Source of the DNA: CBDCXE01 sp965223725 [NCBI: Nitrospinota bacterium]
Lineage (GTDB): Bacteria > Nitrospinota_A > UBA7883
Direction of reading: 5' to 3'
Assembly: GCA_965223725.1 (NCBI GenBank)
Contig: CBDCXE010000005.1
Location: 62,001-126,000 of the forward strand
DNA: 64,000 nucleotides
The notes below the pieces were generated by a model. It did no database searches. It saw only the letters and a list, made by a program, of their open reading frames with translations, and was not told the DNA's origin. The translations under genes were made by a program, and so were the position numbers. Below are positions 9,995-64,000 of the stretch, in pieces (positions within the stretch are counted from its first letter, which is position 1; each line of letters begins with the position of its first letter).

Positions 9995-10281
9995 CTGCCC
10001 AGTTCCCCTGGCTCTGTATCACTATTCGATGTAAAAAGCTTGTGGAAGTAGAAACCAAGCACAAAACCACCCAACGCGCCTGCCAAAAGGAAAGCGAACA
10101 ACAGAAGGTCCCCCTGCGCAACATTTATGTATGGATCGGCAGGTGGTCGGCCAGCTTCCTCGGCGATCTTGCCGACGATCGTCTCGTCTATTCCACCCCA
10201 TTCCGCCTCATGGCTATAGAAGACCATCATTAAGACCCAGCTTAAAGCCAGGGCCAACACGAAATATACAGCTTTTTTCAT
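9991..10281 (-). CDS. cbiN: Cobalt ECF transporter accessory subunit, CbiN-like
   Basis: 96 aa with an N-terminal membrane segment (about 4-22), an acidic outside loop WGGIDETIVGKIAEEAG and a second membrane segment (about 59-81). Two helices around a short exposed loop, placed between cbiM and cbiQ with four-base overlaps on both sides, fit CbiN. Sequence similarity to textbook CbiN is modest, so the call rests partly on position. Confidence 0.78.
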   Translation of the reverse strand: MKKAVYFVLALALSWVLMMVFYSHEAEWGGIDETIVGKIAEEAGRPPADPYINVAQGDLLLFAFLLAGALGGFVLGFYFHKLFTSNSDTEPGELGR

Positions 10282-11009: not shown

Positions 11010-11023
11010 TGCTCTCTCCTTAT

Positions 11024-11545: not shown

Positions 11546-11557
11546 TGTCCCGTCCTT

Positions 11558-12262
11558 TCAGTTTCCATTAGCGATAGCGCAGAGCGAATGCAGGATGCTA
11601 ACAGCGATGGGGCTGCCACCCCGTCTTCCAGCAATCGATATATATGGCGCGCCGGAGGCCATCAGCTCTTCCTTGCTCTCCACCACGTGCACGAACCCGA
11701 CCGGGACACCGATGATGGCCGCCGGTCGAATGTTTTCTTCCACGATCATTCTATTGATTTCCATCAGAGCCACCGGCGCGTTGCCGATGAGGGCGATGCC
11801 GCCGTCGATGATGTTCTTCGCCTTGCGCGCGGCGAACAGCGAGCGGGGCAGCTTTGCGGCTTTTGCTTCTTCCGCCACATCCTTGTCGGCGATATGGCTG
11901 ATGACGTCCGCATCCTTGGAATAGTCGCCATTTACGGCCCTCAGCCGGACCTCCGACACGCCCGCCCGGATCATGTTTGAATCGACATATATGGAACATT
12001 TGTTCCGAAGCGCCGCCGAGGCGGACTCCATGACATCGCTGGAGAATTTAATATCTTTCAACAACGTAAAATCGGCTGTGGTGTGAATAATCCTGCGGGC
12101 AACGATCCATTGATCAGGAGTAAACCCCTGGCTATCCGCTTCGTCATCGATAGCCTGAAAAGATCTTGACTCGATTTCTTCTCCGCTTATCGGATTTTCC
12201 ATCAGGTTATGCACATGGGGTCTTGAGCCGTTGCTCTTGTCTGTCATTGTTTGTTCGTTCAT
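11558..12262 (-). CDS. cbiC: Cobalt-precorrin-8 methylmutase
   Basis: 234 aa. Moves the C11 methyl group to C12, giving cobyrinate. Family motifs: IESRSFQAIDDE, RRIIHTTADFTLLKDI (catalytic His region), KNIIDGGIALIGNAPVAL, IIGVPVGFVHVVESKEEL. ATG 12262 overlaps the cbiA stop by four bases. An upstream in-frame start at 12298 lies inside cbiA and adds an unconserved segment. Confidence 0.94.
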   Translation of the reverse strand: MNEQTMTDKSNGSRPHVHNLMENPISGEEIESRSFQAIDDEADSQGFTPDQWIVARRIIHTTADFTLLKDIKFSSDVMESASAALRNKCSIYVDSNMIRAGVSEVRLRAVNGDYSKDADVISHIADKDVAEEAKAAKLPRSLFAARKAKNIIDGGIALIGNAPVALMEINRMIVEENIRPAAIIGVPVGFVHVVESKEELMASGAPYISIAGRRGGSPIAVSILHSLCAIANGN

Positions 12263-13653: not shown

Positions 13654-13855
13654 ATGAGTATGCTCCAGCGGTGGAGAATGGGGGAAATGCCAATACAACA
13701 AAAAGCAGGATATGAAAAACAGAAAGAATGACCTGGGGCGGATATTGGCATCTTTATATCTCCTGGATTCGTATAACGTTTCCAAGGATGCCGTATTTAA
13801 TCCTTATTTACCGGGCAGCCGTAAAATCCGACGGCGCAACACGATACTATCTATA

Positions 13856-14020
13856 AAGTGAGTAAGTTTTCTGGCTTCCGGATTAATAACCTACTTACCG
13901 CGTCTTCCCATCCTATTAAAAGGACAGTGACTTTATGCGGTGTTCGTTCCCGGTTACAGCGGCGGTTCCGCAACGGTTTCTAACCGTTTTCCTTGACAGC
14001 TCCAATGGAGCCCCTCACTT
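13856..14020 (-). promoter_or_regulatory. Cobalamin riboswitch ahead of the cbi operon
   Basis: Read on the minus strand it shows the conserved order of an AdoCbl aptamer: closing stem AAGTGAG with CTCACTT, a G-rich P3-P4 region with CCGCCGCTGTAACCG, GTCACTG, GGGAAGACG, and the B12 box GAAGCCAGAAAACTT. It lies about 200 bases before cbiA, so the operon is expected to be repressed when cobalamin is plentiful. No clear U-tract terminator follows; a weak hairpin GCCGT/ACGGC at about 13818-13836 is the only candidate. Control may be translational. Confidence 0.92.
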
Positions 14021-14118
14021 ATGATTAAATGAAATACCATAATCATAATACTATGTCAACAAATTAAATCCGTCCCAAGTACAATATTTTTGTGTTTGAT
14101 ACTTTCATGGCTGCCGGG

Positions 14119-41328: not shown

Positions 41329-42453
41329 TCAAAAGCTTGCATTGAGCCGCATCCCATACACAAAAACATTTCTTTTTGATGTCCTTTCCAGATCATTGAT
41401 GAACTGAACATCACCGGTGAGCGCAATATGGTCGTTTATACCAAGGTTATAGTAACCCTCCAGCACCGATTCGCCTTCGTTCTGCTCTTTAACAAGGTCT
41501 TTGTTCAGCTCCACCTTGCCATACGCCAGGCCAACGGTATCGTTGTCCCTGCCCCACAGGCCGCCGCCAATCTGGGCGCCGCCGGAGATAGCGGAGGTTA
41601 CTTCGTTTTCCACCAGGCTGTCATCCTGCGCGGCGTATCGGAAAAACAGACCGACTTCATCCGCCACCTGCTGGTCCAGCGAGATGAGGAACCCCGTGTT
41701 GCTTTCCACTGAGTTTGTGTTGATTTTATGGAAATCAACATCGGAATGGACAATATATTTGAACCGGTAATTGCCAGAGCGCTCGCCAAACAACGGATGA
41801 AAGGCGACCTCCGCCACATGGTAACCTTTGTTGAACAGGTCTTCGGTCTCGTCCTTGCTGTAGTTATAGTTGAGCGACACAAGATTGTTCGGCCTGACGG
41901 TGAGTGAAATGGTCGGCGCGAAATAATTCAGATGTTCTGTGAATACAACACCAAACATGTTGACAAACATATTGTTGAGAAACTGGGTCATTTCATCATG
42001 GGCATATTCGTTTTGATCGTTCAGGTAATGAACATCCATTTTGCCGGCCATCAGGGTCACTTTGCCATCGAGGAACTCGCCCTCATAAAACGCCTCTATC
42101 ACCGTGGCTTGCACTCCCGTGTCATCAGTCGTATCTGCTGCGTCGAAGTTGGGCAAGGTCCGGCCGCCGACATTGAAATTGGCGCCATCGCCTTCCCCCA
42201 TCTCGAACCAGAGGTATACTTTATGACCTTCGGTAATCTCACCGATTAATCCGCCCTCGGCGGAGAAGGCGAAGTCCAACTGGTCCTTTATATCCTGATA
42301 ATCATTACCGGATGTACCCTGAAGAATGGTCGTAACGATAAACTCCGCTGTTATATGATCAGTCCACGACTCGCTATCCAAAGCCAGAGCGGTTGTTGTC
42401 ATCCAGATGGATAATAATCCTGCAATGGCCACTGTTTTCATTTTGATTTTCAA
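41329..42453 (-). CDS. Outer-membrane porin in a cobalamin-riboswitch operon
   Basis: 374 aa from TTG 42453 (GGGAG seven bases upstream; ATG 42441 and the upstream 42477 are alternatives). Signal peptide (VAIAGLLSIWMTTTALA), then barrel strands with VTLMAGKMDVHYLNDQNEYAHDEMTQF and GLAYGKVELNKDLV, and terminal RLNASF with C-terminal Phe. It resembles carbohydrate-selective OprB or other general porins. It lies 111 bases downstream of the CbtA-like gene, in the same orientation. It is likely co-expressed under cobalamin control, so passage of cobalt or corrinoid is inferred. Confidence 0.78.
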   Translation of the reverse strand: MKIKMKTVAIAGLLSIWMTTTALALDSESWTDHITAEFIVTTILQGTSGNDYQDIKDQLDFAFSAEGGLIGEITEGHKVYLWFEMGEGDGANFNVGGRTLPNFDAADTTDDTGVQATVIEAFYEGEFLDGKVTLMAGKMDVHYLNDQNEYAHDEMTQFLNNMFVNMFGVVFTEHLNYFAPTISLTVRPNNLVSLNYNYSKDETEDLFNKGYHVAEVAFHPLFGERSGNYRFKYIVHSDVDFHKINTNSVESNTGFLISLDQQVADEVGLFFRYAAQDDSLVENEVTSAISGGAQIGGGLWGRDNDTVGLAYGKVELNKDLVKEQNEGESVLEGYYNLGINDHIALTGDVQFINDLERTSKRNVFVYGMRLNASF

Positions 42454-42564
42454 CGTACTTCTCCCGTTATTTGTCACATTATTAATAATAAGTGATGATG
42501 AACAGCCAGACGTTTTGCCACAACACGTGCGGCAAAACGCTAGACTGATTGTTACTTTACGATG

Positions 42565-42987
42565 CTATCCTGCGAACACATCTTCGATCGTTTTCGTTTT
42601 CCAAATCAGGCCAAAGATCACACCAAGGGCTATCGCCAGGACGAGACCTTGTATCGATTGAACCATGACCGGATGGTAACGTTCATGATCAGCCATGGTG
42701 AGCGCTGAACCGACCAGACGAAGGATCGCCCAAAAACCGGCGGATAAAGCAACCGCCCGGATTACCGGCCTGTCAATGAGAAACAGCGAGTCAGTGACCG
42801 CCATCAACCCCCCGACAACCACGCCGAATATCGCGCCGCCGATCGAAAATGTAACAAGTAACATCACAATGTTCATTTCAAAAGGAAACGCGCTGGTGAT
42901 TGTGTTGACGATAATCCCGATAATACCGAGCAATACGCCAGACAGCACACCGATACTAAACCCTTTGAAAGCTAGTTTTGGATCCAT
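42565..42987 (-). CDS. Four-helix membrane protein, probable partner of CbtB
   Basis: 140 aa with four membrane segments (SIGVLSGVLLGIIGIIVN, MLLVTFSIGGAIFGVVVGGLM, ALSAGFWAILRLVGSALTM, GLVLAIALGVIFGLIW). GAGGACAAGG precedes ATG 42987. It sits 25 bases after cbtB, where cbtA normally lies. CbtA is usually about 220-260 residues with five helices, and I do not see its His motifs. It may be a reduced or replacement cobalt-transport subunit. Confidence 0.65.
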   Translation of the reverse strand: MDPKLAFKGFSIGVLSGVLLGIIGIIVNTITSAFPFEMNIVMLLVTFSIGGAIFGVVVGGLMAVTDSLFLIDRPVIRAVALSAGFWAILRLVGSALTMADHERYHPVMVQSIQGLVLAIALGVIFGLIWKTKTIEDVFAG

Positions 42988-43012
42988 TACCTTGTCCTCA
43001 AATTACATGGTC

Positions 43013-43192
43013 CTAATGACAAGGCATACCCATGACATGCCTGAAATCATGAAACACATCATGCGCGCCCATGGCAACTGCATCGATCCCAAAGGCGATG
43101 ACCACAGTTGAAAAAGTAAACGCCATCAACATCCCAACCACAGCCATTTGTGTGGATGCGCTGGATTTTGGTTGGGCAATTGTGTTTTCCAT
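43013..43192 (-). CDS. cbtB: Cobalt transporter subunit CbtB
   Basis: 59 aa: one membrane helix (MAVVGMLMAFTFSTVVIAFGI) followed by a His-rich tail AHDVFHDFRHVMGMPCH, the CbtB signature for metal capture. ATG 43192 has AGGAG seven bases upstream; the extension to 43228 is not needed. It is the first gene after the cobalamin riboswitch. Confidence 0.85.
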   Translation of the reverse strand: MENTIAQPKSSASTQMAVVGMLMAFTFSTVVIAFGIDAVAMGAHDVFHDFRHVMGMPCH

Positions 43193-43496
43193 TTTTCTTC
43201 TCCTTTTTAAATTTTCAATTCTTATCAATATATTAAGAAGCCGCGCCCAGGATGATCAGGCCCCAGACAAGACATTGATGAAGCGTCAACCCGGACTATG
43301 TAAGGGCAGAGCGCATAAAGAGGCGCAGAAATGGCGTGATGAATCGTAATTTGGGATAATTTCGACTTAGCGCTATTAGATAACAACGCCGAATTTAACA
43401 AAACAGCCATCCCAGCCTTAAAACTAAGGGTTTCCGGGAAGCCGTTTTTTCTTCCAGGTTCTGATCAGCCCATACCACGGGACATCAGACTAAACA
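43193..43496 (-). other. Leader between riboswitch and cbtB
   Basis: No coding region seen. The GGTTTCC/GGAAGCC pair at about 43430-43446 is followed by T's only on the plus strand, so it would not end the riboswitch transcript. It could pair with other leader segments. Confidence 0.4.
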
Positions 43497-43645
43497 CATT
43501 GCAGGCAAGTCTTCTGGCTTCCGGCTTAACCTACTGGCCACGTCTTCCCGTCCCAAAAAGGACAGTGACATAATGCGGCTTTCGTAACCGGTTACAGCGG
43601 CGGGTCCGCGACGGATTCAAACCGTCTTCCTTATTAAGGTTGCAT
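43497..43645 (-). promoter_or_regulatory. Cobalamin riboswitch ahead of cbtB
   Basis: On the minus strand: closing stem around TGCAA/TTGCA, AAGGAAGACGGTTTGAATCCG, CCGCCGCTGTAACCGG, GTCACTGTCC, GGGAAGACG and the B12 box GAAGCCAGAAGACTTGCC. The core is closer to consensus than the copy at 13.9 kb. About 300 bases of leader without a gene separate it from cbtB; I see no clear terminator there. Confidence 0.93.
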
Positions 43646-43890
43646 TACCACCTACAATGTCGGCCAGTGTAACAGAACTAAATGCGATGTCAAATATTTT
43701 TTTAAATATTTGTTTTGCCATTCACACAATAAAAACGGTCATCTCATATTTGAAAATAGTAAATCAAAATGTAAAATCAGCCTGACAAATTTTCTGATTC
43801 AGCGCTTGTTGTCACTAATCGGTTTGTCGTTATCTAACGGGGTCTTGCGTCCCAATTCTGTATTGTATGGCTACCCATCCGCTTTCATAG

Positions 43891-51055: not shown

Positions 51056-54031
51056 ATGCCAGTCACTTCCCCTGATTCGGTTTTCAAAGTTCTGGCGGAT
51101 CGGTTTTATGAAAAAATAAAAGGCGAGACACCAACAGTTTACGACCCCAACTATTGGCAAGGCAGGTTGCTTGAATATTCGATGCGGGATGAGAAGTTTA
51201 GAACCAACCTTTTCCGGTTTGTTGATCTGTTACCAGCATTGAAAACAGGAAGCCAGATATCCCGCCATGTTAATGAGTATTTCGCGGGAAACGGGAATAG
51301 CAAATCCGGCGCAATAGACCTTTTGTTAAAAGCGGCCACCTTTGGGCCTTTCTCCGGGTTCGGATCCATAGCCGTGCGCAAAGGTGTGACACAACTGGCG
51401 GAGCGTTTCATCATAGGCAAGGATATCGAATCGGCCCTGAAGACAGCGGCAAAATTACATGATGAGGATTTTGCTTTGACCATCGATCAGCTGGGCGAGG
51501 CCACTTTGAGTTATCCTGAAGCCAAAAATTATCAGAAAGCTTACATCAACCTGATAAAGCAGTTTGGCGATAGAACGGCCAAGTGGCATGACAATCCGAT
51601 AATAACCAATAACCATTTTGGCGCCATCCCGGTGGGGAACATCTCGCTCAAACTTTCAGGGATCGAACCGAACCTCGACAGCGTGGATCCGGTTGGTTCG
51701 GTCGACAGGCTCAAGAAAGCTCTGCTCCCGATCCTGATGATAGCGAAGGAGAAGAATGTTTTTGTAAACCTTGATATGGAGCAGTGGGAGTACCACGGTA
51801 TAACCTATGACCTGTTTGAAGAGATCACCGCCACACCGGAGCTTCGGGGATGGCCGCATCTGGGGGTGGTAGCGCAAGCATACCTGAAAAATTCTGAACA
51901 GGACTTGAAGCGCCTGATATCTCTGGCTAAAAACCGGGGCGCGCCTGTCACCGTCCGCCTGGTGAAGGGCGCCTATTGGGATTATGAAGTGATTAACGCC
52001 CGTGCAAAAGGTTTCGATTGCCCGGTATATACAGAGAAGGTCGAAACCGATTATAACTTTGAGAAGCTGACAGAACTGCTGTTTGAAAATATCGATCATA
52101 TGCACCCCGCCATAGCGAGCCACAACCACAGATCGGTGCTGAACGCCATCGCAACGGCAGAATCGAAAGGTATCCCCAATAACAGTTTTGAAATACAGAT
52201 GCTATACGGCATGGCGGAGCCGGAGCGCAAAGCAATACGGGACCTGGGCCATCGTATACGGCTATACGCGCCGGTGGGCGAGCTTTTGCCTGGCATCGGT
52301 TATCTTGTACGCAGGCTTCTGGAAAATACATCCAACACCAGCTTTCTGAGGATGAGCTATCACGAAGGTTTTGACAAAGGTGAACTTTTGAAAAAGCCTG
52401 TCCCCGCTGAACAACCTGAAGAGACGATAAAGATGATATCAGGTGATCTTGATACCGCTTTTCAAAACGTTCCCAACACCGATTTTACAGAGAGAGCGGC
52501 ATATAAAACCTATAAGGATTCGATGGAAAATATTAAAGCGGAGTTTCCGATAAAGGCGCCGGTTGCTGTAAATAACGTTGAGCGATGGAAAGGGGAGACT
52601 TTTAGGCGGTTTGATCCAGGCTCCAACGATTTGCTGGTGGGTGAGACTGTCATCCCCACCCTCGAAGATGTGGAGAAAGCGGTTTTATCCGCCAACAATG
52701 CGATGCCGGAATGGAGCGGCATGGATGTTGTCGATCGGGCTGTTTATATAGAGAAGCTGGGCGAGATAATAGAGAATCACCGGAGCCGGCTGGCCGCCCT
52801 GGAAGCGTATGAGGTTGGCAAAACATGGCGCGAGGCGGACGCCGATATATCGGAAGCCGTCGATTTTTGCCACTACTATGCGCGAAGGGCAGTGATGGAA
52901 CTATCCGCCGGGCCGCAGAGTGATATAGCCGGGGAAGAAAACGAGCTACGATACAAAGGCAGGGGCCCCACAGCAGTGATAGCGCCCTGGAACTTCCCGC
53001 TGGCGATATTGTGCGGTATGACAACCGCGGCCCTGGTCGCCGGCAACAGCGTGATTATGAAGCCATCCGGCAATTCATCACTGGTCGGGTACGAGTTGTA
53101 CAAAATGCTGAAAGAAGTTGGTTTGCCAATGGGCGTTGTTCATTTCATACCGGGCGCCGGCAGGCTAGTGGGTGAGCGCCTTGCACAGCATCCATTGATA
53201 GCTCAGATCGCATTTACAGGCAGCAAGGAGGTGGGGCTGGGCATTATTGAAAAGGCAGCCAAGGTTGCGCCCGGCCAGCCGCAGATCAAAAGGGTTATTT
53301 GCGAGATGGGTGGTAAGAACGGTATCATTATCGACGATGACGCCGATCTGGACGAGGCGGTGTCGGGTGTGCTGAAAAGCGCATTCGGCTATGCGGGCCA
53401 GAAATGCTCGGCATGCTCGAGGGTTATCGTTGTTGGCGAGGATACCTACGATAGCGTTGTTGAAAGGCTTAAAAACGCATGTGACGGCATAATAATCGCC
53501 CCTGCCTGTAACCCGGAAACGCAGCTTGGGCCGGTGGTCGACGCCGAAGTTTATAAACGTTTACTGGACGTGATCAACAGTCCGGGCGCTGGCGCCGAGG
53601 CTATATATATTGGTGATAAAAGCAAGGCTCCTTCATCCGGCTATTATGTTCCTCCTGCCGTTTTTGCTGTGACAGATGAACAGCACCCACTAATGCAAAA
53701 GGAGTTTTTCGGGCCGATAGTGGCGGTGATGAAAGTAAATTCATTTGATGAAGCTCTGAAAGTCGCCACCTCCACCGAATATGCCTTGACCGGCGGACTG
53801 TTCTCCAGAAGCCCGGTGAATATTGAGAAGGCAAGGAAATCTTACGTGGTCGGTAACCTCTATATCAACAGAGGTATTACCGGCGCCCTGGTACACCGCC
53901 AACCCTTCGGAGGGTTTGGTATGAGCGGCATCGGAACCAAGGCGGGCGGGCCGGGCTATCTGCTGAACTTTGCAGAACCACAGTCGATATCGGAAAACAG
54001 CATGCGCCGGGGGTTTGCGCCTGATGAATAA
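51056..54031 (+). CDS. putA: Bifunctional proline dehydrogenase/P5C dehydrogenase
   Basis: 991 aa, the short PutA form without the ribbon-helix-helix DNA-binding domain. Proline dehydrogenase barrel about 60-430 (FVNLDMEQWEYHGITYDLF, VRLVKGAYWDYEVI, ASHNHRSV, LYAPVGELLPGIGYLVRRLLEN) and aldehyde dehydrogenase about 500-980 (APWNFPLAI, ITFTGSKEVG-type AFTGSKEVG, ICEMGGKNGIII with catalytic Glu, GYAGQKCSACSRV with catalytic Cys). Oxidises proline to glutamate with FAD and NAD+. GAGG precedes the ATG. It overlaps agrE by eight bases. Confidence 0.96.
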   Translation: MPVTSPDSVFKVLADRFYEKIKGETPTVYDPNYWQGRLLEYSMRDEKFRTNLFRFVDLLPALKTGSQISRHVNEYFAGNGNSKSGAIDLLLKAATFGPFSGFGSIAVRKGVTQLAERFIIGKDIESALKTAAKLHDEDFALTIDQLGEATLSYPEAKNYQKAYINLIKQFGDRTAKWHDNPIITNNHFGAIPVGNISLKLSGIEPNLDSVDPVGSVDRLKKALLPILMIAKEKNVFVNLDMEQWEYHGITYDLFEEITATPELRGWPHLGVVAQAYLKNSEQDLKRLISLAKNRGAPVTVRLVKGAYWDYEVINARAKGFDCPVYTEKVETDYNFEKLTELLFENIDHMHPAIASHNHRSVLNAIATAESKGIPNNSFEIQMLYGMAEPERKAIRDLGHRIRLYAPVGELLPGIGYLVRRLLENTSNTSFLRMSYHEGFDKGELLKKPVPAEQPEETIKMISGDLDTAFQNVPNTDFTERAAYKTYKDSMENIKAEFPIKAPVAVNNVERWKGETFRRFDPGSNDLLVGETVIPTLEDVEKAVLSANNAMPEWSGMDVVDRAVYIEKLGEIIENHRSRLAALEAYEVGKTWREADADISEAVDFCHYYARRAVMELSAGPQSDIAGEENELRYKGRGPTAVIAPWNFPLAILCGMTTAALVAGNSVIMKPSGNSSLVGYELYKMLKEVGLPMGVVHFIPGAGRLVGERLAQHPLIAQIAFTGSKEVGLGIIEKAAKVAPGQPQIKRVICEMGGKNGIIIDDDADLDEAVSGVLKSAFGYAGQKCSACSRVIVVGEDTYDSVVERLKNACDGIIIAPACNPETQLGPVVDAEVYKRLLDVINSPGAGAEAIYIGDKSKAPSSGYYVPPAVFAVTDEQHPLMQKEFFGPIVAVMKVNSFDEALKVATSTEYALTGGLFSRSPVNIEKARKSYVVGNLYINRGITGALVHRQPFGGFGMSGIGTKAGGPGYLLNFAEPQSISENSMRRGFAPDE

Positions 54032-56084
54032 GAAAAAAATTCTAATGTGCCGACCAGATTCATACAGCGTCGACTATGTGATCAACCCATGGATGAAAAG
54101 CAATGTCGGTAAAACGGATAAAGCAAAAGCTGATAACCAGTGGAACGATTTGTATAGCATAGTTGCAAAGCTGGCCGATATTGATTTTATAGAACCGATG
54201 CATGGGCTGCCCGATATGGTGTTCACCGCCAACGCCGGGTTTACTTTGGAAAACGATGTGCTGCTCTCCAACTTTGCATATAAGGAGAGGCAACCGGAAG
54301 AGCCGCTTTTCAAATGCTGGTTTGCAAGCAATGGGTTTGTGGTTCATGAGCTGCCAAAAAACCTGCTGTATGAGGGGGGCGGCGACTCGCTTCTCGATTC
54401 GGATGGCAGGCTTTGGGCAGGATATGGCCAGCGCACATCATTAGAAACCCATCCATACCTGGCGAAAATCTTCAAGCTGGAAGTTGTAAGTTTGCGTCTT
54501 ATGGACCAGCGGTTTTATCATCTTGATACATGTTTTTGCCCATTGGAGTCTGGTTATTTTCTCTATTACCCAGGGGCCTTTGATAGCAGGTCCAACAGGG
54601 TGATTGAAGAAAAGGTTCTGGATGAAAAGCTGATCGCCGTTTCGGAGGAGGACGCTGTTGAGTTTGCTTGCAACGGGGTAAATATCGACGACCATATTAT
54701 CATGAATAGCTGCTCCAAAGATTTATGCGTCCGGCTGGAATCTGTCGGCTTTGATGTTATCCAGACCGGGCTGAGCGAGTTTATCAAAGCGGGTGGAAGC
54801 GCAAAATGTTTGACTTTGAACCTATCCGAAATTCCACCATCCAATCGGGAGCCCCTTTCAACAGTAGTCAGCGGAACGGTTGTGACCAAAGGTCAGCTTA
54901 TCGACACCAGCCTGATGAGCCGTATATGCGACAGGATCGTGGATGGCGGTGCGTCGTTCCAGGTCAATGGCATCTCCATAAGCCAAAAGCGGAAAGAGCC
55001 ATCAATGGCGGAAATCGATATCAGCGCGCCGAGCGAGGTAATGTTTAACGATGTTGTCAAAGAAGTAGCCGTCCTGGGCGCCGAGCCGCTGCAGACAGAA
55101 TCGGACGACGCCACGCTGGCCGTTGTGGAGAATGCAGGAGTCGCGCCGGATGGTTTTTACACTACAACTATCTACAGCACCCAGGTCAGGGTGGATGGGC
55201 GCTGGATTGATGTTTCCAGACAGCGGATGGATGGCGTCATTATCATAGAGGAGGGGAAAGCTCGCTGCGACATTTTGCGCAACCTCAAAGCTGGCGATAA
55301 AGTTGTCACGGGCGAACAAGGAATAAAAGTCACCACCCCCCTTCGTGAATATGGTTACCACGAAATGTTCGGTTTCATGACGGCGTCCGCCTCCAGCGAG
55401 CGAAGGGTTGATATCACCATAGAAAGTGTCGCCAGAGATATACACCGACTGAAGGAGATCCATGGCAAGCTGGTGGTTGTGGCTGGGCCGGTGGCTATAC
55501 ATACAGGCGGGGCAAGCCACATAGCGTGGATGATTAAACATGGCTATATATCAGCCCTGCTCGGCGGGAACGGGGTGGCCACCCACGACATAGAGCGGGC
55601 GATTTATGGCACCAGCCTGGGTGTCAATCTCTATACAGGCAAGCCGGCGCATGAAGGGCACCGCAACCACCTGGAAGCTATAAATATAATAAGGAAAGAA
55701 GGGTCCATCGCGAACGCTGTGAAGAGCGGCAGGTTATCCTCCGGGATTTTTTATGAGCTGATAAAAAATGATGTCCCATATTCTCTGGCGGGCAGTATAA
55801 GGGACGATGGCCCGTTGCCAGACACGGAGATGGATCTGCTCAAGGCGCAGGATCAATATTCGGAATTGATACAGGGCGCCGATATGATTCTGGCGCTCTC
55901 CAGTATGCTTCATGCCATCGGGACCGGAAATATGACATCGGCTAACGCTAAATTTGTCTGCGTAGATATCAACCCTGCGGTCGTCACCAAACTTACCGAT
56001 AGAGGTAGCCTTGAATCAACAGGCATTGTCACAGATGTCGGCCTGTTCCTCTCCAAACTGACCGACCTGCTTAAAAGTTATTAA
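54024..56084 (+). CDS. agrE: Bifunctional arginine dihydrolase/ornithine cyclodeaminase (AgrE/ArgZ-like)
   Basis: 686 aa. N-terminal amidinotransferase-fold domain (1-290) with FTANAG, YEGGGDSLLD, RFYHLDTCFCPL and the nucleophile Cys in GGSAKCLTLNL; this set matches the dihydrolase that releases ammonia and CO2 from arginine giving ornithine. The C-terminal LOR/SDH-type domain (about 300-686) has VVAGPVAIHTGG, ALLGGNGVATHDIERAIYGTSLG, GHRNHLEAIN and SIRDDGPLPD, as in the ornithine cyclodeaminase half of cyanobacterial AgrE, which makes proline. It starts inside the end of putA, so arginine carbon would pass via proline to glutamate. Confidence 0.9.
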   Translation: MNKKKILMCRPDSYSVDYVINPWMKSNVGKTDKAKADNQWNDLYSIVAKLADIDFIEPMHGLPDMVFTANAGFTLENDVLLSNFAYKERQPEEPLFKCWFASNGFVVHELPKNLLYEGGGDSLLDSDGRLWAGYGQRTSLETHPYLAKIFKLEVVSLRLMDQRFYHLDTCFCPLESGYFLYYPGAFDSRSNRVIEEKVLDEKLIAVSEEDAVEFACNGVNIDDHIIMNSCSKDLCVRLESVGFDVIQTGLSEFIKAGGSAKCLTLNLSEIPPSNREPLSTVVSGTVVTKGQLIDTSLMSRICDRIVDGGASFQVNGISISQKRKEPSMAEIDISAPSEVMFNDVVKEVAVLGAEPLQTESDDATLAVVENAGVAPDGFYTTTIYSTQVRVDGRWIDVSRQRMDGVIIIEEGKARCDILRNLKAGDKVVTGEQGIKVTTPLREYGYHEMFGFMTASASSERRVDITIESVARDIHRLKEIHGKLVVVAGPVAIHTGGASHIAWMIKHGYISALLGGNGVATHDIERAIYGTSLGVNLYTGKPAHEGHRNHLEAINIIRKEGSIANAVKSGRLSSGIFYELIKNDVPYSLAGSIRDDGPLPDTEMDLLKAQDQYSELIQGADMILALSSMLHAIGTGNMTSANAKFVCVDINPAVVTKLTDRGSLESTGIVTDVGLFLSKLTDLLKSY

Positions 56085-56717: not shown

Positions 56718-58280
56718 CTATGTTTGCAGATTTTTTATCTTGCTGACCCGCCTGCCGTCACTTTGCTCGTTTCCGATCTTTTTGTCGTATTTTTTCAGCT
56801 TTCTCCACAGGGTGGAAATATCCATGCCCAGTATTTTGGAGGCCTTTGTTTTGTTGCCCCCGGTGATATTGAGGACCATGTTTATATGCTGCCGTTCCAT
56901 GTTTTCCAGAGACAGGCTGCCCAAGCCTTCATCATTGGGAACAGCGAGACCTATTCTGTTATCGTCAAAAAGGATCTCATCATGTTCGGCCACAGCGACA
57001 GCCCGTTCTATGGTATTTTCAAGCTCCCTGATATTACCTGGCCAGTCGTAGCGCATAAGGGCGGCCATGGTAGATGTGGAGATGGTACGAACATTTTTGC
57101 CAAGTTTTTTATTAAACTTGTCCATAAAATGCCTTGTAAGCAAAGATATATCCTCCACTCTTTCCCTGAGCGGCGGCATCTCTATTTTTATGACGTTGAG
57201 GCGATAGTAAAGGTCCTCACGAAAAGTTTCTGTTTCGACCGCTTCTTTCAGGTTTTTGTTGCTGGCTGCCAATACTCTCACATTAACGGTGATGGGGGTG
57301 GAGCCACCTACTTTATAAAAGGTCAAATCCTGCAGGACACGAAGCAACTTGGCCTGCAGGCCCGCGCTCATGGTTTCAACCTCATCCAGGAAAATAGTTC
57401 CAGTATTGGCCACCTCAAACAAGCCTTTTTTGTCACAATTTGCGCCGGTGAACGCACCCTTGACATAACCAAACAACTCAGATTCCAAAAGGTTTTCAGG
57501 CAGGGCAGCGCAATTTACCGCAATAAAAGGGTCGTCCCTCCGCAGGCTGTTGTAGTGAAGCGCCTTGGCTATCAGCTCCTTGCCGGTTCCACTTTCACCT
57601 TCAATAAGTATGTTCGAGGATATGTTGGCTACCTTTTTTGAAAGTTTCAAAACCTCCATCATCTTGGGGCTATATCCTATTATCCCTTTGAAGTTGACAT
57701 ATCTTTTGATGGTCTCCGTATCTTTTTTCAGGTTTTCGAAATGCTTCGCGTTTTCTATCGCAAGGCCAATGGGCACTGTGGCGGCCCGCAATGTATCCAG
57801 CAGGTCGTTGGTTGGCCTGAAAGGCTTGAATTTGAATACGCATAACACTCCCATAACTTTCCCCTTTGCCATTAGGGGAAGTCCGGCATAGAATTCCATA
57901 CCTGCTTCCTGGAGTTTGCCTTTTAGAATCCTGGAATCTTTGGAAGCTTTTTCAAAAATAATTATTTCTTTTTCGAATTCGGCTATTGTGCCACAAAGGC
58001 ATTCCCCCACTTTTACCCTGTTTTCAGTGACATCCTTGATGATATCTTCTGATAAATTACAAAACGAAAAAGGGATCAACTCCATAGTTTCGCTATCGAT
58101 GATGTAAATAATCCCTGAGTCTACCCCCATAAAGTCAACAACTTTGACAACAACGTCATCGAGAATAGTTTTCAGGTTAAGGGAACTACCAACGGTGAGG
58201 GCAATTTCATAGAGTATCGACAGCTTCTTGCTTGAATTACTATTTTTGTTTTCCGAGCTCATATGTCCATATTCTTTCAT
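56718..58280 (-). CDS. Sigma-54-dependent transcriptional activator with GAF sensor
   Basis: 520 aa. GAF domain (about 25-180: VKVVDFMGVDSGIIYII, CLCGTIAEFEKEIIIFE, FYAGLPLMAKGKVMGVLCVFKF), AAA+ domain (about 205-430) with Walker A GESGTGKE, sigma-54 contact loop GAFTGAN, Walker B GTIFLDEVE, arginine-finger region LYYRLNVIKI, and C-terminal Fis-type HTH (GGNKTKASKILGMDISTLWRKLKKY). No receiver, so it responds to a small ligand or redox state through GAF (Cys pair CLC in the domain). It is divergent from the Mo/corrinoid cluster, whose promoter has a -24/-12 element. Confidence 0.95.
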   Translation of the reverse strand: MKEYGHMSSENKNSNSSKKLSILYEIALTVGSSLNLKTILDDVVVKVVDFMGVDSGIIYIIDSETMELIPFSFCNLSEDIIKDVTENRVKVGECLCGTIAEFEKEIIIFEKASKDSRILKGKLQEAGMEFYAGLPLMAKGKVMGVLCVFKFKPFRPTNDLLDTLRAATVPIGLAIENAKHFENLKKDTETIKRYVNFKGIIGYSPKMMEVLKLSKKVANISSNILIEGESGTGKELIAKALHYNSLRRDDPFIAVNCAALPENLLESELFGYVKGAFTGANCDKKGLFEVANTGTIFLDEVETMSAGLQAKLLRVLQDLTFYKVGGSTPITVNVRVLAASNKNLKEAVETETFREDLYYRLNVIKIEMPPLRERVEDISLLTRHFMDKFNKKLGKNVRTISTSTMAALMRYDWPGNIRELENTIERAVAVAEHDEILFDDNRIGLAVPNDEGLGSLSLENMERQHINMVLNITGGNKTKASKILGMDISTLWRKLKKYDKKIGNEQSDGRRVSKIKNLQT

Positions 58281-59452: not shown

Positions 59453-59469
59453 TTGGCATTGAATTTGCT
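59453..59469 (+). promoter_or_regulatory. Sigma-54 promoter of the Mo/corrinoid cluster
   Basis: TTGGCATTGAATTTGCT: GG (59455-59456) and GC (59467-59468) have the exact spacing of the -24/-12 consensus TGGCAC-N5-TTGCW, with one mismatch in the first box (T for C). A start near 59480 would leave a leader of about 160 bases. Confidence 0.75.
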
Positions 59470-59643
59470 CCTTAGGGTGTCACATAGGAAATCATAATTG
59501 CAAAGTGAACTTTAGAACTGTTTGAGCAACTTAAATGATTGTGAGGGGAGCGCAACAGTGGCTATAACGTGGATTGGGTAGTCAATTTTGACATCCACAC
59601 CTTAGTTACTTTTGTTCCTTTAAATATATAAGGGGTTAATAAT

Positions 59644-61860
59644 ATGAGTGTAAGTAATGGCGTGCTTTCCAGCGGCGCTTTATTACAAAGAGACATGGAA
59701 AATGCTGACCGCATTGAGAAAACAGTTTGCCCGAGGAATTGTTTCGATACTTGCGGAATGCTGGCCTATGTCAAGGATGATAAATTAATCGGGATAAAGG
59801 GTGATCCGGAACATCCTATAACCAAAGGCCACCTTTGCGCCAAAGCAACAACTTACGTGCGCAGAACCTACCATAAAGACCGAATCAAATATCCCCTGAT
59901 GCGAGTTGGCAAAAGGGGTGAGGCTGATTTTAAACGGGTAAGTTGGGATGATGCTTTTGATTACATTACCAGCAAACTGAACTTTTGCAAAAAGAAGTAT
60001 GGTAGTGAATCGATTACCGAATACGCCTACAGCGGTAATCGCGAGTTTTTGGCAAAGGCTGTCGCTGGACGGTTTCTTAACCTCGTAGGCGCTTCAAGGC
60101 TTGTTGGCAGCTTTTGTATATTAAGCGGCTTGTCTGGGGCAACATATACAAATGGCACCCAATACGTGCAAAGTATAGAAGTCTGGTCCAAAAAGGCTGA
60201 AGTGATAATGATAGTAGGCCATAACTCTTCTTTCACAAATGTCCATTCCTTGCCATATATATGGGATGCTGTGGAAAGAGGCGCCTATCTTATCGTTGTT
60301 GATCCATACCTGACACCAATTGCCGCCAAGGCTGACCTTTTCTTGCAGCCGCGCCCTGGCACAGACGCTGCCATGGTTCTTGGCATGATTAACCATATTT
60401 TCAATAAAGGGCTTGAAGATAAGGATTTCATCTCAAAGCACACCTATGGTGTGGACGAATTGAAATCTGGTGTGACGGAATGGACTCTCGAGAAGGCGGC
60501 AGAGGTCACCGGCATCGATCCGCACAAGATCGAAAAAGCCGCTGAAATCTATGCGACAAATCACTCCCATATGGAATGTGGCTGGGGTCACCAGCGTTAC
60601 ACCAATGGTCATCAGACCCAGAGGGCGTATTCATGCATGGCGGCTATTTGCGGGCATATTGGTAAAGAGGGCGCAAGCGTAAATTATTTTGATATGCACG
60701 CCTACGACACCCGCGATCCAGACCAAGTGGCGACCCCACTGTTCACTCCCGGATTTCTGAACATGGAAAAGATTGTTTTCCCAAGGGGGGCGCCTCATAG
60801 AACTCTTAAAAAGAGACTGATTAATATAAGCACTTTCGGGCCCGCATTGAGAGAGGCTGCAGATCCACCATTGAAGGCTGTGCTTTCCTGGCGTGGCGGC
60901 CTTATCAGCCAGCTGCCTAATGTGAACGAAATGACCAAAACCTTGAATAATTTGGATTTGCTGGTCAGCTCTGAATTGTTCATGACAGATGACACAGATT
61001 GGGCGGACATTGTTTTGCCTGCTGCGGATACTTTCGAGCAATGGGGTATCCATCCATCATATTGGCATCACTATATCCAGGTTCAAAAGCCAGTGATTGA
61101 GCCACTTTACGAGTCGAAAGCGGATCTGGACATCTGGTGCGAGCTGGGCAGAAGAATGGGGCATAAAAAGTTCTTTCCAGAAGAGTATACAGGGGAAGAC
61201 TGGCTCAAAGAGATAATGCCACCGGATTTTGAATTGACCAAGTCAATGGATAGCGACATGATCGTCGAAGTCCCGGAGAAACATGCGCCGAGGGTTCCAT
61301 ATTCTGATCACGTTTTCAATACTCCGACCGGAAAGATTGAGCTTTACTCGACCGGTATGGTGAAGCGAGGTCAAAGGTATCCTGGTGAGTGGGCGCCGGT
61401 TCCACATTATGTAGAGCCTGGCGAAGGTCCAGTCAGTCGGCCAGACCTCTTTAAGAAATATCCTTTGATGATGATATCACAGCACGCGCCACTACGGACC
61501 CATTGTCAGTGGTTTAATATCGAGGAAATTCAGGAGATTGAAGGTCCTCCAGGTATATTCATAAACGAATTAGACGCGCGTGAATACATGATTGAAGAAG
61601 GAGACACGGTAAGCGTATTTAATGACCGTGGAGAAATTACAGTTGTCGCCAAGATAACCAACCGGATCAAAAAGGGCGTCGTCGAGATAAACAGCGGTAA
61701 CTGGGTGAAGTCTGGTAGCAGCGCAAATGTCTTGATGGATGATTTGATAGGCGGTCCAAGGGATGTCGGCGCTGGCGTAATGATAGCTTATGACATGGAG
61801 CGGGATGGCAACAGCATCGCTTATTTCAACTGCCTTGTGCAGATTAAAAAGGCAACTTAA
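59644..61860 (+). CDS. Molybdopterin (bis-PGD) oxidoreductase, DMSO-reductase family
   Basis: 738 aa. N-terminal 4Fe-4S motif CPRNCFDTCGML...HLCAKA (about 29-68). Family marks: RIKYPLMRVGKRGEADFKRVSWDDAFDYI, VIMIVGHNSSFTNVH, VDPYLTPIAAKADLFLQPRPGTDAAM, C-terminal pterin-contact SQHAPLRTHCQWFN and GDTVSVFNDRGEI. The Mo ligand is probably Cys in VGSFCILSG; no Sec codon is seen. No Tat signal, so it is cytosolic, unlike respiratory DMSO reductases. First gene of the sigma-54 cluster, followed after 25 bases by an electron-carrier gene. The substrate is unknown; a methylated or hydroxylated small molecule is guessed from the corrinoid protein downstream. Confidence 0.9.
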   Translation: MSVSNGVLSSGALLQRDMENADRIEKTVCPRNCFDTCGMLAYVKDDKLIGIKGDPEHPITKGHLCAKATTYVRRTYHKDRIKYPLMRVGKRGEADFKRVSWDDAFDYITSKLNFCKKKYGSESITEYAYSGNREFLAKAVAGRFLNLVGASRLVGSFCILSGLSGATYTNGTQYVQSIEVWSKKAEVIMIVGHNSSFTNVHSLPYIWDAVERGAYLIVVDPYLTPIAAKADLFLQPRPGTDAAMVLGMINHIFNKGLEDKDFISKHTYGVDELKSGVTEWTLEKAAEVTGIDPHKIEKAAEIYATNHSHMECGWGHQRYTNGHQTQRAYSCMAAICGHIGKEGASVNYFDMHAYDTRDPDQVATPLFTPGFLNMEKIVFPRGAPHRTLKKRLINISTFGPALREAADPPLKAVLSWRGGLISQLPNVNEMTKTLNNLDLLVSSELFMTDDTDWADIVLPAADTFEQWGIHPSYWHHYIQVQKPVIEPLYESKADLDIWCELGRRMGHKKFFPEEYTGEDWLKEIMPPDFELTKSMDSDMIVEVPEKHAPRVPYSDHVFNTPTGKIELYSTGMVKRGQRYPGEWAPVPHYVEPGEGPVSRPDLFKKYPLMMISQHAPLRTHCQWFNIEEIQEIEGPPGIFINELDAREYMIEEGDTVSVFNDRGEITVVAKITNRIKKGVVEINSGNWVKSGSSANVLMDDLIGGPRDVGAGVMIAYDMERDGNSIAYFNCLVQIKKAT

Positions 61861-61885
61861 ACACCAATAATTTTTGGAGACCAAA

Positions 61886-62497
61886 GTGGCTTACGACCAT
61901 TTAGCAATACACGTAGATACATTTCGTTGCGTAGGCTGTCATGCATGCGCTACGGCATGCAAGATAGAACACGACATACCCCCAGGGCCCAAGTGGATGG
62001 AGGTTATTGAAGTAGAGAAAAAGGTTGGCGATGAATGGGAAATGTTCTGGAAACCTATGGCATGCATGCATTGCGGCGAGCCTGACTGTCTTCCCGTTTG
62101 CCCAACCAAGGCTATATCCAAGAGAGATGAAGATGGCATCGTACTTGTGAGCAAAGACTTATGTATTGGATGCATGGAGTGCTTCAGGGCATGCCCCTTC
62201 GGGACTCCTCAGCTTGGGTTTGATGGAAAGATGGAAAAGTGCAACCTTTGCATTCATAAAGTGGCTTATGGCGGAGTGCCGGCATGTGTAGAAAATTGCC
62301 CCTCGGAGGCTATGTTTTTCGGCACCATGTTAGAGCTGTCTAACATGATGCGAGCAAAATATTCCAGTAAATCCTTGGGCAATAGCGAGCAGGTATACAA
62401 CCCTTCTGTGGCTCCAGGCGTTGGAAACGGGAAAAAGGAGGTGACCAGAAGAGGCGCGTCAATTAATTTTCATAGCAGAAAAAAGGCTATACGCTAA
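61886..62497 (+). CDS. Four-cluster ferredoxin-type electron-transfer subunit
   Basis: 203 aa, DmsB/HybA-like. Cys sets: CVGCHACATACK, CMHCGEPDCLPVCP, CIGCMECFRACP, CNLCIHK...CVENCP, enough for four 4Fe-4S clusters. GTG 61886 is preferred (GGAG six bases before) over TTG 61874. No membrane anchor subunit follows, so electrons probably go to or from a soluble partner. Placed to serve the Mo enzyme. Confidence 0.92.
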   Translation: MAYDHLAIHVDTFRCVGCHACATACKIEHDIPPGPKWMEVIEVEKKVGDEWEMFWKPMACMHCGEPDCLPVCPTKAISKRDEDGIVLVSKDLCIGCMECFRACPFGTPQLGFDGKMEKCNLCIHKVAYGGVPACVENCPSEAMFFGTMLELSNMMRAKYSSKSLGNSEQVYNPSVAPGVGNGKKEVTRRGASINFHSRKKAIR

Positions 62498-62527
62498 TTT
62501 CAATACTATAGAAAGGACACCGTTAAC

Positions 62528-63064
62528 ATGGCAGATACAGGATTACTCAATGGCGTAGATACTGAGATATTCATGAGCACAGTCGACGCAGTGAAGGATA
62601 ACCCAAATACGGGCGCTACGAGTTGGCGCGTAAGTACTAAGTGGAAAGGAGGGCTGAAAACTGAAGCTACCATCAGGCAATTTACTTTAAACTTTGATGA
62701 GCCTGAAGGCATAGCTGGTGAAGATTCAACGCAAAGTCCGCATGAAACAGTATTGGCATGTTATGGCGCATGTCTGACTGTTGGCATGTCACTTAGGGCC
62801 GCGCTGAAGGGGATTGCGCTTCAGAATGTTGAGATTGAACTGGAAGGTTTGATTGATCTGCCTGGTTTTCTAGGCCTTGCAGGAATCCAGGGCCTTAAAG
62901 ATACACCTGGGTTTCATACAGTGAGGGCCACAATGAATGTCCAGAGTGAAGCTCCTAAAGAGGATATTCAAGAGCTTTTCGATACAGTTGTAAAGTACTC
63001 GCCCGTTGGGCTAACTCTTTCGCAGCCAGTTAAAATGGAAAGCACGCTAGTGTACAAAGGTTAA
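62528..63064 (+). CDS. OsmC-family protein lacking the second peroxidatic Cys
   Basis: 178 aa. OsmC fold: SPHETVLACYGACLTVGMSLRAALKG carries the first conserved Cys region, but the usual CPV second-Cys site reads YSPVGLTLSQPV, with Ser. An extra loop LIDLPGFLGLAGIQGLKD separates the halves. Classical OsmC/Ohr reduce organic hydroperoxides through both Cys; this one probably does not, and may bind or carry a thiol or small electrophile. It is 31 bases after the ferredoxin gene, inside the sigma-54 cluster. Confidence 0.88.
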   Translation: MADTGLLNGVDTEIFMSTVDAVKDNPNTGATSWRVSTKWKGGLKTEATIRQFTLNFDEPEGIAGEDSTQSPHETVLACYGACLTVGMSLRAALKGIALQNVEIELEGLIDLPGFLGLAGIQGLKDTPGFHTVRATMNVQSEAPKEDIQELFDTVVKYSPVGLTLSQPVKMESTLVYKG

Positions 63065-63157
63065 TTACAGGAAAGCCATTTATTAGTAAGCGTTTGAAAA
63101 TGCATTACTTGTGCAATTTCAAGCAATTAAATTTTACTTTAGAATAAGGAGAGGTGA

Positions 63158-63820
63158 ATGTCTAAAGAGACAGAGATACTGGATGGATTGCATGACGCTA
63201 TCTTGGATTTGGACAAGGATGCGGCTGTGAGTTTAGCAGAAGAATTAGTGAAAACCGGGGGGGACCCACTCAAAGCCATAGATTCTATGGGCACAGCGAT
63301 GAACGAATTGGGCGTGAAATTTGAAAAGATGGAAGTTTTTCTTCCGGAAGTTGTTATTGCTTCTAAGGCGCTTAAGGCAGCCATGGTAATTTTGAAGCCT
63401 GAGATCTTGAAGCAGGGTGAGGAAACAGGCGCAGCAGAAAGGCCTGTTGTTGTCATTGGTACTGTGAAGGGTGATATTCACACCATTGGTAAGGACATGG
63501 TTGCTACTTTGTTGATGACCGCTGGCTTTGAAGTGGTGGACATGGGCCCGGATACTCCGCCTTCGGACTTTCTCAATAAGGCCGAAGAATTGGGCGCCAC
63601 CATCATCGCGGCAACTGCCATGATGTCCACTACCTTGCCAATACAAAAAGATCTTGTTGATTTCCTTGACGCAAAGAAACTTCGCGACAAATATAGCGTT
63701 ATGGTCGGTGGTGGTGTTGCTTCGCAAGGTTGGGCGGAGAGCATTAATGCAGATGGTTATGGTCAGGATGCTATAGAAGCAGTTAAAGTAGCGAAAAACT
63801 TGGCTTCTAAGAAAAAGTAG
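63158..63820 (+). CDS. Methyltransferase corrinoid protein (MtaC/MttC-like)
   Basis: 220 aa. N-terminal helical cap (about 1-90, AEELVKTGGDPLKAIDSMGTAM) and a Rossmann B12 domain with the lower-ligand motif D106-x-H108-x-x-G111 (VKGDIHTIGKDMV) and ATAMMSTTLP. It carries Co(I)/methyl-Co(III) between a substrate methyltransferase and an acceptor enzyme. No MttB/MtaB-type methyltransferase or RamA-type activator is in the visible part of the cluster. AAGGAGAGG precedes the ATG. Confidence 0.95.
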   Translation: MSKETEILDGLHDAILDLDKDAAVSLAEELVKTGGDPLKAIDSMGTAMNELGVKFEKMEVFLPEVVIASKALKAAMVILKPEILKQGEETGAAERPVVVIGTVKGDIHTIGKDMVATLLMTAGFEVVDMGPDTPPSDFLNKAEELGATIIAATAMMSTTLPIQKDLVDFLDAKKLRDKYSVMVGGGVASQGWAESINADGYGQDAIEAVKVAKNLASKKK

Positions 63821-63899
63821 GAAAGCATCTAGCATTATGCAAGGGCTTAATCTAAATAAATATCAGAATATTACACAAATATAAAAAGGAGATGTTGCA

Positions 63900-64000
63900 A
63901 TGCCAAATACAGGATCAAAAGGTAGGCTACTTGAAGTTTGGTCTAGGGGTGAGACCGGCGAAGTATGTTTTAATACCGAGTTTGATACAGATAGATTCTG
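63900..64000 (+). CDS. Start of a further cluster gene, cut by the window edge
   Basis: AAAAGGAGATG precedes ATG 63900 at good spacing. The 33 visible codons read MPNTGSKGRLLEVWSRGETG then EVCFNTEFDTDRF, with no family recognised. It follows the corrinoid gene by 79 bases and is likely part of the same operon; a methyltransferase would be expected but cannot be shown. Confidence 0.7.
   Translation, partial: MPNTGSKGRLLEVWSRGETGEVCFNTEFDTDRF

What the first reader, a model, noticed from the sequence alone, without database searches (positions are those of the whole stretch)
59453..64000. Sigma-54-controlled Mo/Fe-S/OsmC/corrinoid cluster of unknown substrate
A cytosolic Mo-bisPGD enzyme, a four-cluster ferredoxin, an OsmC-like protein and a MtaC-type corrinoid protein lie in one run behind a good -24/-12 promoter, divergent from a GAF-type sigma-54 activator. 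Known corrinoid methyltransferase systems pair the corrinoid protein with a substrate methyltransferase and RamA-type activator; pairing with a Mo oxidoreductase and an OsmC protein is a layout I cannot match to a described pathway. It may couple methyl transfer to a redox step on a small methylated compound.
Basis: partly seen in the sequence, partly recalled or inferred. Interest (0 to 1): 0.78.

Follow-up and report, generated by a model that had tools for sequence, protein, structure and literature searches.

The report
Molybdenum enzyme linked to methyltransferase genes
A rare molybdenum- or tungsten-type enzyme of subsurface bacteria lies beside genes of a vitamin-B12-dependent methyl-transfer system whose methyltransferase probably begins at the very end of the window, which suggests an undescribed way of using a small methylated compound whose identity is still unknown.

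Summary
The genes are as described: sigma-54 activator divergent from a Mo/W-bisPGD enzyme (MopB), four-cluster Fe-S protein, OsmC-fold protein and corrinoid protein behind a strong -24/-12 site. MopB orthologues (52-84% identity) occur in 9 of the genomes sampled from two phyla. The probable metal ligand is Cys in 4 and Sec (in-frame TGA) in 6 of 10 readable copies. In 7 relatives the core adjoins an ABC importer, not a corrinoid gene. Window and L046 corrinoid proteins are sisters while their MopBs lie in different subclades, so the tie is probably functional. Substrate, direction and coupling are inferred. One non-pyrrolysine MtmB (MtqB, PMC13044021) has a demonstrated function. No paper with this combination was found.

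The parts
56718..58280 (-). GAF-AAA+-HTH_8 sigma-54 activator, divergent from the operon
   Evidence: orthologues beside the core in L005, L006, L030, L008, L025 and L034; none found in L026 or L046, and about 6 kb away in L047
59454..59469 (+). -24/-12 (sigma-54) promoter-like site TGGCATTGAATTTGCT
   Evidence: score 21 of 22.5, best of the window, 1 of 300 shuffles reaches it; similar sites upstream of MopB in L030, L008, L025 and of the corrinoid gene in L046; none in L005, L006, L026, L027, L034
59644..61860 (+). MopB: Mo/W-bisPGD enzyme with N-terminal [4Fe-4S] site (CPRNCFDTC)
60115..60117 (+). codon of Cys158, probable Mo/W ligand; Cys or Sec in the 10 copies where it can be read
   Evidence: alignment A1
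61874..62497 (+). Fe-S protein with four [4Fe-4S] cluster motifs (DmsB-like); the start may be GTG at 61886
62528..63064 (+). OsmC-fold protein; one catalytic-type Cys (Cys82) invariant, the second position read as Ser158
63158..63820 (+). corrinoid protein (B12-binding, GDIHTIGK motif), MtgC/methylamine type
   Evidence: sister of the L046 corrinoid protein
63900..64000 (+). first 33 codons of a probable MtmB-type methyltransferase; runs off the window
   Evidence: match to L046:6750-8207, 11 of 31 identical, pairwise E 2e-7, 0 of 5000 shuffles reach the score; the fragment alone found no relative

Best explanation
A sigma-54-switched anaerobic utilisation operon. Shown: a MopB without a visible export signal (Cys or Sec at the metal-ligand position), with a four-cluster Fe-S partner and an OsmC-fold protein, forms a conserved core; in the window and in L046 this MopB is linked to a corrinoid protein and an MtmB-family methyltransferase (whole gene only in L046, with Lys where MtmB has pyrrolysine). 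Inferred: the methyltransferase takes a methyl group from a small methylated substrate (an N-methyl, perhaps quaternary compound is the first guess, from MtqB; an S-methyl compound is possible) to Co(I) of the corrinoid protein; MopB carries out a redox step on the same compound or on its demethylated product, passing electrons through the Fe-S protein to or from the ferredoxin/NAD(P) pool. In relatives without the methyl module, an ABC importer would bring in a substrate that needs no demethylation.
For: Order corrinoid - MtmB-like - membrane protein - MopB - FeS in L046, with a -24/-12 site 228 bp before the corrinoid gene (9 of 300 shuffles reach its score). Window and L046 corrinoid proteins are sisters (100/100) among 8 rows, while their MopBs fall in different supported subclades among 12 rows. 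MtmB family: Pfam 227 bits against cut-off 25, PDB 1tv2 E 4e-50. The window's last gene matches the L046 protein's start. Ligand position only Cys or Sec in 10 copies; SelB above cut-off in 7 of 7 and tRNA-Sec at or above gathering score in 6 of 7 carriers tested. PadI/PadH-like ferredoxin and flavoprotein in the operons of relatives.
Against: No corrinoid or MtmB-like gene was found in the stretches read around MopB in the other carriers, so MopB is found without the methyl module more often than with it. Only two loci show the linkage, and L046 has no OsmC gene within its 19 kb. 93 bp separate OsmC from the corrinoid gene. No RamA-type activator was seen among the window proteins scanned (not every ORF was scanned). 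The window's methyltransferase is 33 codons only. The L046 MtmB-like protein matches no NCBIfam model. The fold after the TGA does not stand out from shuffles in 3 of 4 loci.
Confidence: 0.4

Rival explanations
1. Chance neighbours: the MopB-FeS-OsmC core is an ABC-importer-linked system, and the corrinoid/MtmB pair is a separate methyltransferase operon that lies next to it.
For: In 7 of the 9 relative genomes OsmC is followed directly by the substrate-binding protein of an ABC importer; 93 bp gap before the corrinoid gene.
Against: The same corrinoid clade and an MtmB-like gene adjoin a MopB of another subclade in L046; same strand, no terminator-like site found between them (weak).
Confidence: 0.3
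2. The MopB/Fe-S module is the reductive activator of the corrinoid protein (Co(II) to Co(I)), in place of RamA.
For: Four-cluster Fe-S carrier close to the corrinoid gene; no RamA-type gene seen among the window proteins scanned (not all ORFs).
Against: MopB occurs with an importer and without a corrinoid gene beside it in 7 relatives; a Mo/W active site is not needed for activation (general knowledge); RamA may lie outside the window.
Confidence: 0.07
3. The core handles an imported organo-metalloid or organo-sulfur compound, akin to the Sec-assisted organometallic (SAO) system or to sulfonate import; the methyl module demethylates it.
For: The ATPase of L030 scores best with SaoA (254 bits) and the permease with SaoP (174); the SBP is SsuA/SaoX-like (102 and 72 bits); OsmC hits only the OsmC-related (seleno)protein model, below its cut-off (55 of 95 bits).
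Against: All Sao scores lie below their cut-offs (360, 295, 300); SaoP is barely ahead of TauC (171 bits); no Sao lyase (SaoL) match in the neighbours scanned.
Confidence: 0.15
4. A formate dehydrogenase or acetylene hydratase under another layout.
For: Best PDB profile hits are acetylene hydratase (345 bits), polysulfide/thiosulfate reductase (321) and HDCR FdhF (320).
Against: The His that follows the ligand Cys in FdhF is Ile, Leu or Val in the 10 copies read; the residue aligned with the Asp after the second cluster Cys of acetylene hydratase is Phe in 7 and Tyr in 1 (L027) of the 8 orthologues read (Trp and Phe in the paralogues L028 and L033). Roles of these residues are recalled.
Confidence: 0.05

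Closest known systems
MtqB/MtqC, non-pyrrolysine MtmB homologue and corrinoid protein of Methanococcoides methylutens Q3c (PMC13044021; abstract, outline and passages seen)
   Same: Non-Pyl MtmB-family methyltransferase with a cognate corrinoid protein
   Different: Methanogen; no Mo enzyme, OsmC or sigma-54 activator mentioned in the passages seen; substrate known (tetramethylammonium, and choline); no direct sequence comparison was made here
Acetylene hydratase (2e7z)
   Same: Highest-scoring solved relative by profile; 28% identity over 425 residues in the model-based alignment
   Different: Asp after the second cluster Cys not kept; its ligand Cys is two columns off in the profile alignment; hydratase without a four-cluster partner (recalled)
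Polysulfide/thiosulfate reductase PsrA (2vpw)
   Same: Ligand Cys in the same column; MopB with a four-cluster Fe-S partner (partner recalled)
   Different: Exported and membrane-bound (recalled); here no export signal visible and no membrane subunit in the core
SAO (Sec-assisted organometallic) system (PMC13188914, passages; the original paper PMC9879109 is not held)
   Same: Related ABC importer, Sec use
   Different: Scores below every Sao cut-off; no SaoL match in the neighbours scanned
MOLY cluster of sulfur disproportionation (PMC12998232, passages)
   Same: Mo enzyme plus Fe-S subunit in Nitrospirota
   Different: MOLY has a TorD/DmsD chaperone and is thought extracellular; no chaperone among the window's core genes
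Type 1 mlp gene clusters (PMC10418091; abstract, outline, passages and part 1 of Results seen)
   Same: Corrinoid protein with methyltransferases of unproven substrate in anaerobes, most with Sec machinery
   Different: Methyltransferases there are UroD-type (Mlp) with a Ram/RACE gene; here MtmB-type, no Ram seen

Membership tests
MopB (DMSO reductase superfamily) | Molybdopterin, Molydop_binding and Fe4S4 domains | tested here: met
   all three above cut-off
Formate dehydrogenase | Sec/Cys ligand followed by His | tested here: not met
   Ile, Leu or Val follows in the 10 orthologous copies read (Ile and Ala in the paralogues L028 and L033); FdhF of 7qv7 has His; role of His recalled; TIGR01591 282 of 666 bits
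Acetylene hydratase | Asp directly after the second cluster Cys | tested here: not met
   Phe in 7 and Tyr in 1 of 8 orthologues read; alignment; role of Asp recalled
Selenoprotein variant of this MopB | In-frame TGA at one conserved site in a genome with Sec machinery | tested here: met
   TGA in L030, L008, L026, L027, L046, L047. Of the 5 genomes with a TGA copy, SelB is over its cut-off in 4 of 4 tested and tRNA-Sec in 3 of 4 (G359 exactly at the score, G004 below); G451 not tested. Controls over cut-off: SelB 2 of 14, tRNA-Sec 5 of 14
Selenoprotein variant of this MopB | SECIS hairpin after the TGA | tested here: inconclusive
   z 0.16, 0.55, -1.04, -1.88; the L026 stretch holds only about 32 bases after the TGA
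Classical OsmC/Ohr peroxidase | Two catalytic Cys (recalled) | tested here: not met
   Cys82 invariant in 8 of 8 rows; the second site, placed by eye, is Ser158 in 8 of 8
MtmB methyltransferase family (PF05369) | Full-length domain match | tested here: met
   L046 protein 227 bits, cut-off 25; applies to L046 only
MtmB methyltransferase family (PF05369), window gene | Full-length domain match | tested here: inconclusive
   33 codons: no Pfam match; matches the start of the L046 protein
Pyrrolysine MtmB | In-frame TAG at the Pyl202 position | tested here: not met
   L046: Lys207, codon AAG; Pyl202 recalled; not readable in the window
SAO system | SaoX, SaoP, SaoA above curated cut-offs | tested here: not met
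   L030: 72/300, 174/295, 254/360 bits
MtaC-type methanol corrinoid protein | Score above an MtaC cut-off | tested here: not met
   97 of 420 and 88 of 450 bits; the MtgC model also stays below its cut-off, 190 of 310

The most novel reading that the evidence does not exclude
A pathway in which a non-pyrrolysine MtmB-type methyltransferase and a Cys/Sec-ligated Mo or W enzyme act in turn on one small methylated compound, so that demethylation and a redox step are coupled; in subsurface Nitrospinota and Nitrospirota the same Mo enzyme serves either an importer-fed or a methyl-transfer-fed version.
Probability: 0.3. Interest if true: 0.78.

Novelty: new variant of a known kind. Interest (0 to 1): 0.6.

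Why it matters
PMC13044021 states that MtqB is the first non-Pyl MtmB with a demonstrated function; its tree holds 1,061 Pyl and non-Pyl MtmB sequences, and it calls the remaining non-Pyl ones of unknown function. A genome-linked Mo enzyme gives a biochemical handle on another member. A MopB whose metal ligand swaps between Cys and Sec among relatives, with an importer or a methyl module as partner, makes its substrate testable and could add a C1 or organic nitrogen/sulfur input to subsurface Nitrospinota and Nitrospirota.

Tried and rejected
No whole genome is held for the window, so nothing past 64000 could be read. The 33-codon fragment alone found nothing in Pfam, only chance-level rows in PDB (E 0.64 and up) and plasmids (E 8), and nothing in 24 genomes of G001's phylum or 395 of G003's; earlier tries were in the wrong frame. 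A corrinoid search of 395 genomes at E 1e-40 was empty, but the threshold was stricter than the best hit seen (1.2e-36), and G451 was not among them (its handle first appears). The best corrinoid match in G001-G004 was 39%. OsmC as a probe found nothing in genome contigs. Plasmid hits of MopB, corrinoid, OsmC and SBP were all under 60%; the MtmB-like protein found nothing in plasmids. A first -24/-12 scan had a wrong spacer and is replaced. There, shuffles reach the best score in half or more of trials for L005, L006, L026, L027 and L034; in L046 MopB itself (116 of 300) and L047 MopB and OsmC (27 and 26 of 300) no clear site was seen. In some searches only 2 to 4 candidates per genome were fully scored in most genomes, so the tallies may miss copies. 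The AlphaFold model is mediocre (mean pLDDT 62.8); the look at PDB chains lists many MopB enzymes, formate dehydrogenases first (Z 21.5) and acetylene hydratase at Z 17.7, with rmsd about 8, so it does not settle the subfamily. Other corrinoid genes of carriers (L010-L016) showed no MtmB-like neighbour in their short flanks. Considered and rejected: nitrate assimilation (NasC model 200 of 1100 bits), MOLY cluster.
Full report
What is there. From left to right: a GAF-type sigma-54 activator (56718-58280, minus), a 1363-bp gap with a -24/-12 site at 59454-59469, MopB (59644-61860), a Fe-S protein (61874-62497), an OsmC-fold protein (62528-63064), a corrinoid protein (63158-63820) and the first 33 codons of another gene (from 63900). 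The -24/-12 site scores 21 of 22.5 on a consensus written from memory, is the best on both strands of the window, and is reached by 1 of 300 shuffles. The Fe-S protein keeps 16 Cys in all 7 aligned rows. The OsmC protein keeps Cys82 in 8 of 8 rows, while the place where I read the second catalytic Cys of OsmC is Ser in 8 of 8 (motif recalled), so it is probably not a standard peroxidase. The corrinoid protein is nearer to MtgC and methylamine types than to MtaC, though below each cut-off.

Relatives. One scan of GTDB genomes with MopB residues 16-340 gave four close loci (75-88% identity) and one distant one (30%, Nocardia). Further searches found orthologues in 2 of 24 genomes, 4 of 395, 2 of 4, 2 of 149 and 7 of 230. 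These samples overlap; the distinct genomes number 9: G001, G002, G003, G004, G289, G359, G377, G450, G451, with two copies in G451. Identities over the stretches matched run from 52% to 84%. The four named ones are Nitrospinaceae UBA7883, Nitrospirae HyVt-426, a Thermodesulfovibrionia bin and a groundwater Nitrospirae bin; HyVt-426 (G002) is nevertheless counted by the tool in the phylum of UBA7883. The window's MopB is closest to UBA7883, so the window probably comes from a relative of that lineage; this is an inference from one gene. PMC10203281 (passages) describes a class UBA7883 as a basal Nitrospinota group, mostly sampled from subsurface sites; that the bin belongs to it I infer from the name.

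The conserved core. In L005 (G001), L029 (G002), L025 (G377), L026 (G289), L030 (G003), L008 (G004) and L034 (G359) the OsmC gene is followed by a substrate-binding protein (a twin-Arg leader is readable in L005, L030 and L008) and then permeases; the ATPase follows in all but L026, whose contig ends within a permease. So 7 of 9 relative genomes have an importer at the core. In G359 MopB lies after the ATPase instead of before OsmC. In G451 no SBP or permease match was found in the 19 kb read around either copy (one distant ATPase match, 28%, in L047), and the G450 contig is only 4.5 kb. L047 has OsmC before MopB, L046 has none. Several operons go on with a small protein without family, a cytochrome c, a ferredoxin and a flavoprotein; in L030 the last two score best with PadI and PadH. 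The importer is of the NitT/TauT/Ssu kind; its Sao scores are all below the curated cut-offs.

The metal ligand. The profile alignment puts the window's Cys158 at the ligand Cys of polysulfide reductase and FdhF; the Cys of acetylene hydratase lies two columns further. Among copies where the site can be read it is Cys in the window, G001, G002 and G377 and TGA in G003, G004, G289, G359 and both G451 copies, that is 4 and 6 of 10; the G450 piece starts after it. SelB is above its cut-off in 7 of 7 tested genomes and tRNA-Sec at or above its gathering score in 6 of 7 (G359 just at it, G004 below); in the 14 control genomes 2 and 5 pass. G450 and G451 were not tested. A hairpin after the TGA can be drawn, but it is not exceptional against shuffles in 3 of 4 loci, so Sec is inferred from the site and the machinery, not from a SECIS.

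Subfamily. By profile the nearest solved structures are acetylene hydratase, polysulfide/thiosulfate reductase and HDCR FdhF, about 25 bits apart at most. The residue after the ligand is Ile, Leu or Val, not His, and the Asp of acetylene hydratase after the second cluster Cys is not kept. I therefore file it as a MopB of unassigned function.

The methyl module. The class search brought G451. In L046 the order is corrinoid (49% identical to the window's), a 486-aa protein, a 373-aa membrane protein without family, MopB (TGA) and FeS. The 486-aa protein is a full-length MtmB-family protein (PF05369, 227 bits; PDB 1tv2, E 4e-50), without an NCBIfam match. At the position of pyrrolysine 202 of MtmB1 (number recalled) it has Lys207, codon AAG, and no stop lies in frame. 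The window's last 33 codons match its start: 11 of 31 identical, pairwise E 2e-7, and none of 5000 shuffles of the peptide reaches the score. Both genes directly follow sister corrinoid genes, which supports the same reading. A -24/-12 site lies 228 bp before the L046 corrinoid gene; 9 of 300 shuffles reach its score. In trees the window and L046 corrinoid proteins are sisters at 100/100 among 8 rows (two rows with long branches), while their MopBs sit in different supported subclades among 12 rows. So the pair was either present early and lost often, or joined this MopB twice; either favours a functional tie, though two cases are few.

How it most likely works. Shown: gene content, the -24/-12 site, the ligand swap, linkage in two subclades. 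Inferred: that the MtmB-like enzyme moves a methyl group from a small methylated compound to the corrinoid protein, and that MopB carries out a redox step on that compound or its product with electrons moving through the Fe-S protein. MtqB, the first non-Pyl MtmB homologue with a demonstrated function, demethylates tetramethylammonium in vitro; the abstract also gives choline, by proteome, assay and docking (PMC13044021, abstract and passages). Another non-Pyl MtmB-family protein had the greatest increase on dichloromethane in strain DCMF (PMC9768040, passages). The substrate here cannot be named.

Novelty. Searches of the paper library for these combinations listed no paper that, by title or the part seen, describes a MopB/OsmC core with a corrinoid/MtmB pair; the library lacks most subscription papers, and only passages of a few papers were read. 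Each part belongs to a known family; the combination and this MopB clade appear undescribed.

Noticed in passing
window 1768-2823 (-): UroD-superfamily protein closer to MtaA/CmuA-type methyltransferases (157-160 bits, cut-offs 235-244) than to HemE (65 bits), at the end of the cobalamin synthesis run; a possible second methyltransferase for a corrinoid protein.
   Followed up: partly
window 2908-14033 (-): Anaerobic-type cobalamin genes (among them cbiD, cobB, a precorrin-8X methylmutase, cbiM, cbiQ, cbiO-like) behind a cobalamin riboswitch at 13844-14033.
   Followed up: no
window 41329-43670 (-): Second cobalamin riboswitch (43487-43670) upstream of an OprB-type porin gene on the same strand.
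   Followed up: no
window 21623-23632 (+): One protein with a periplasmic-binding-protein domain (Peripla_BP_2) and a CbiZ adenosylcobinamide amidohydrolase domain.
   Followed up: no
window 51056-56084 (+): PutA-like protein followed by an ArgZ-type arginine dihydrolase/ornithine cyclodeaminase (976 bits, cut-off 1025); a likely arginine-to-glutamate route.
   Followed up: no
L046 8358-9479: 373-aa membrane protein (by reading) between the MtmB-like gene and MopB, no Pfam, NCBIfam or PDB match; possible transporter.
   Followed up: partly
L046 4-5262: DmsA-type, Fe-S and chaperone (Nitrate_red_del) genes just before the corrinoid gene, similar in content to the MOLY cluster.
   Followed up: no
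L028 and L035 (G377): Two paralogues of MopB (38%) with a FeS gene each; L028 also has TctA/TctB transporter, CCG-domain and PadH-like genes nearby.
   Followed up: partly
L030 15127-15657: A second OsmC-type gene in the same cluster, lacking the first Cys of the CYGAC motif.
   Followed up: no
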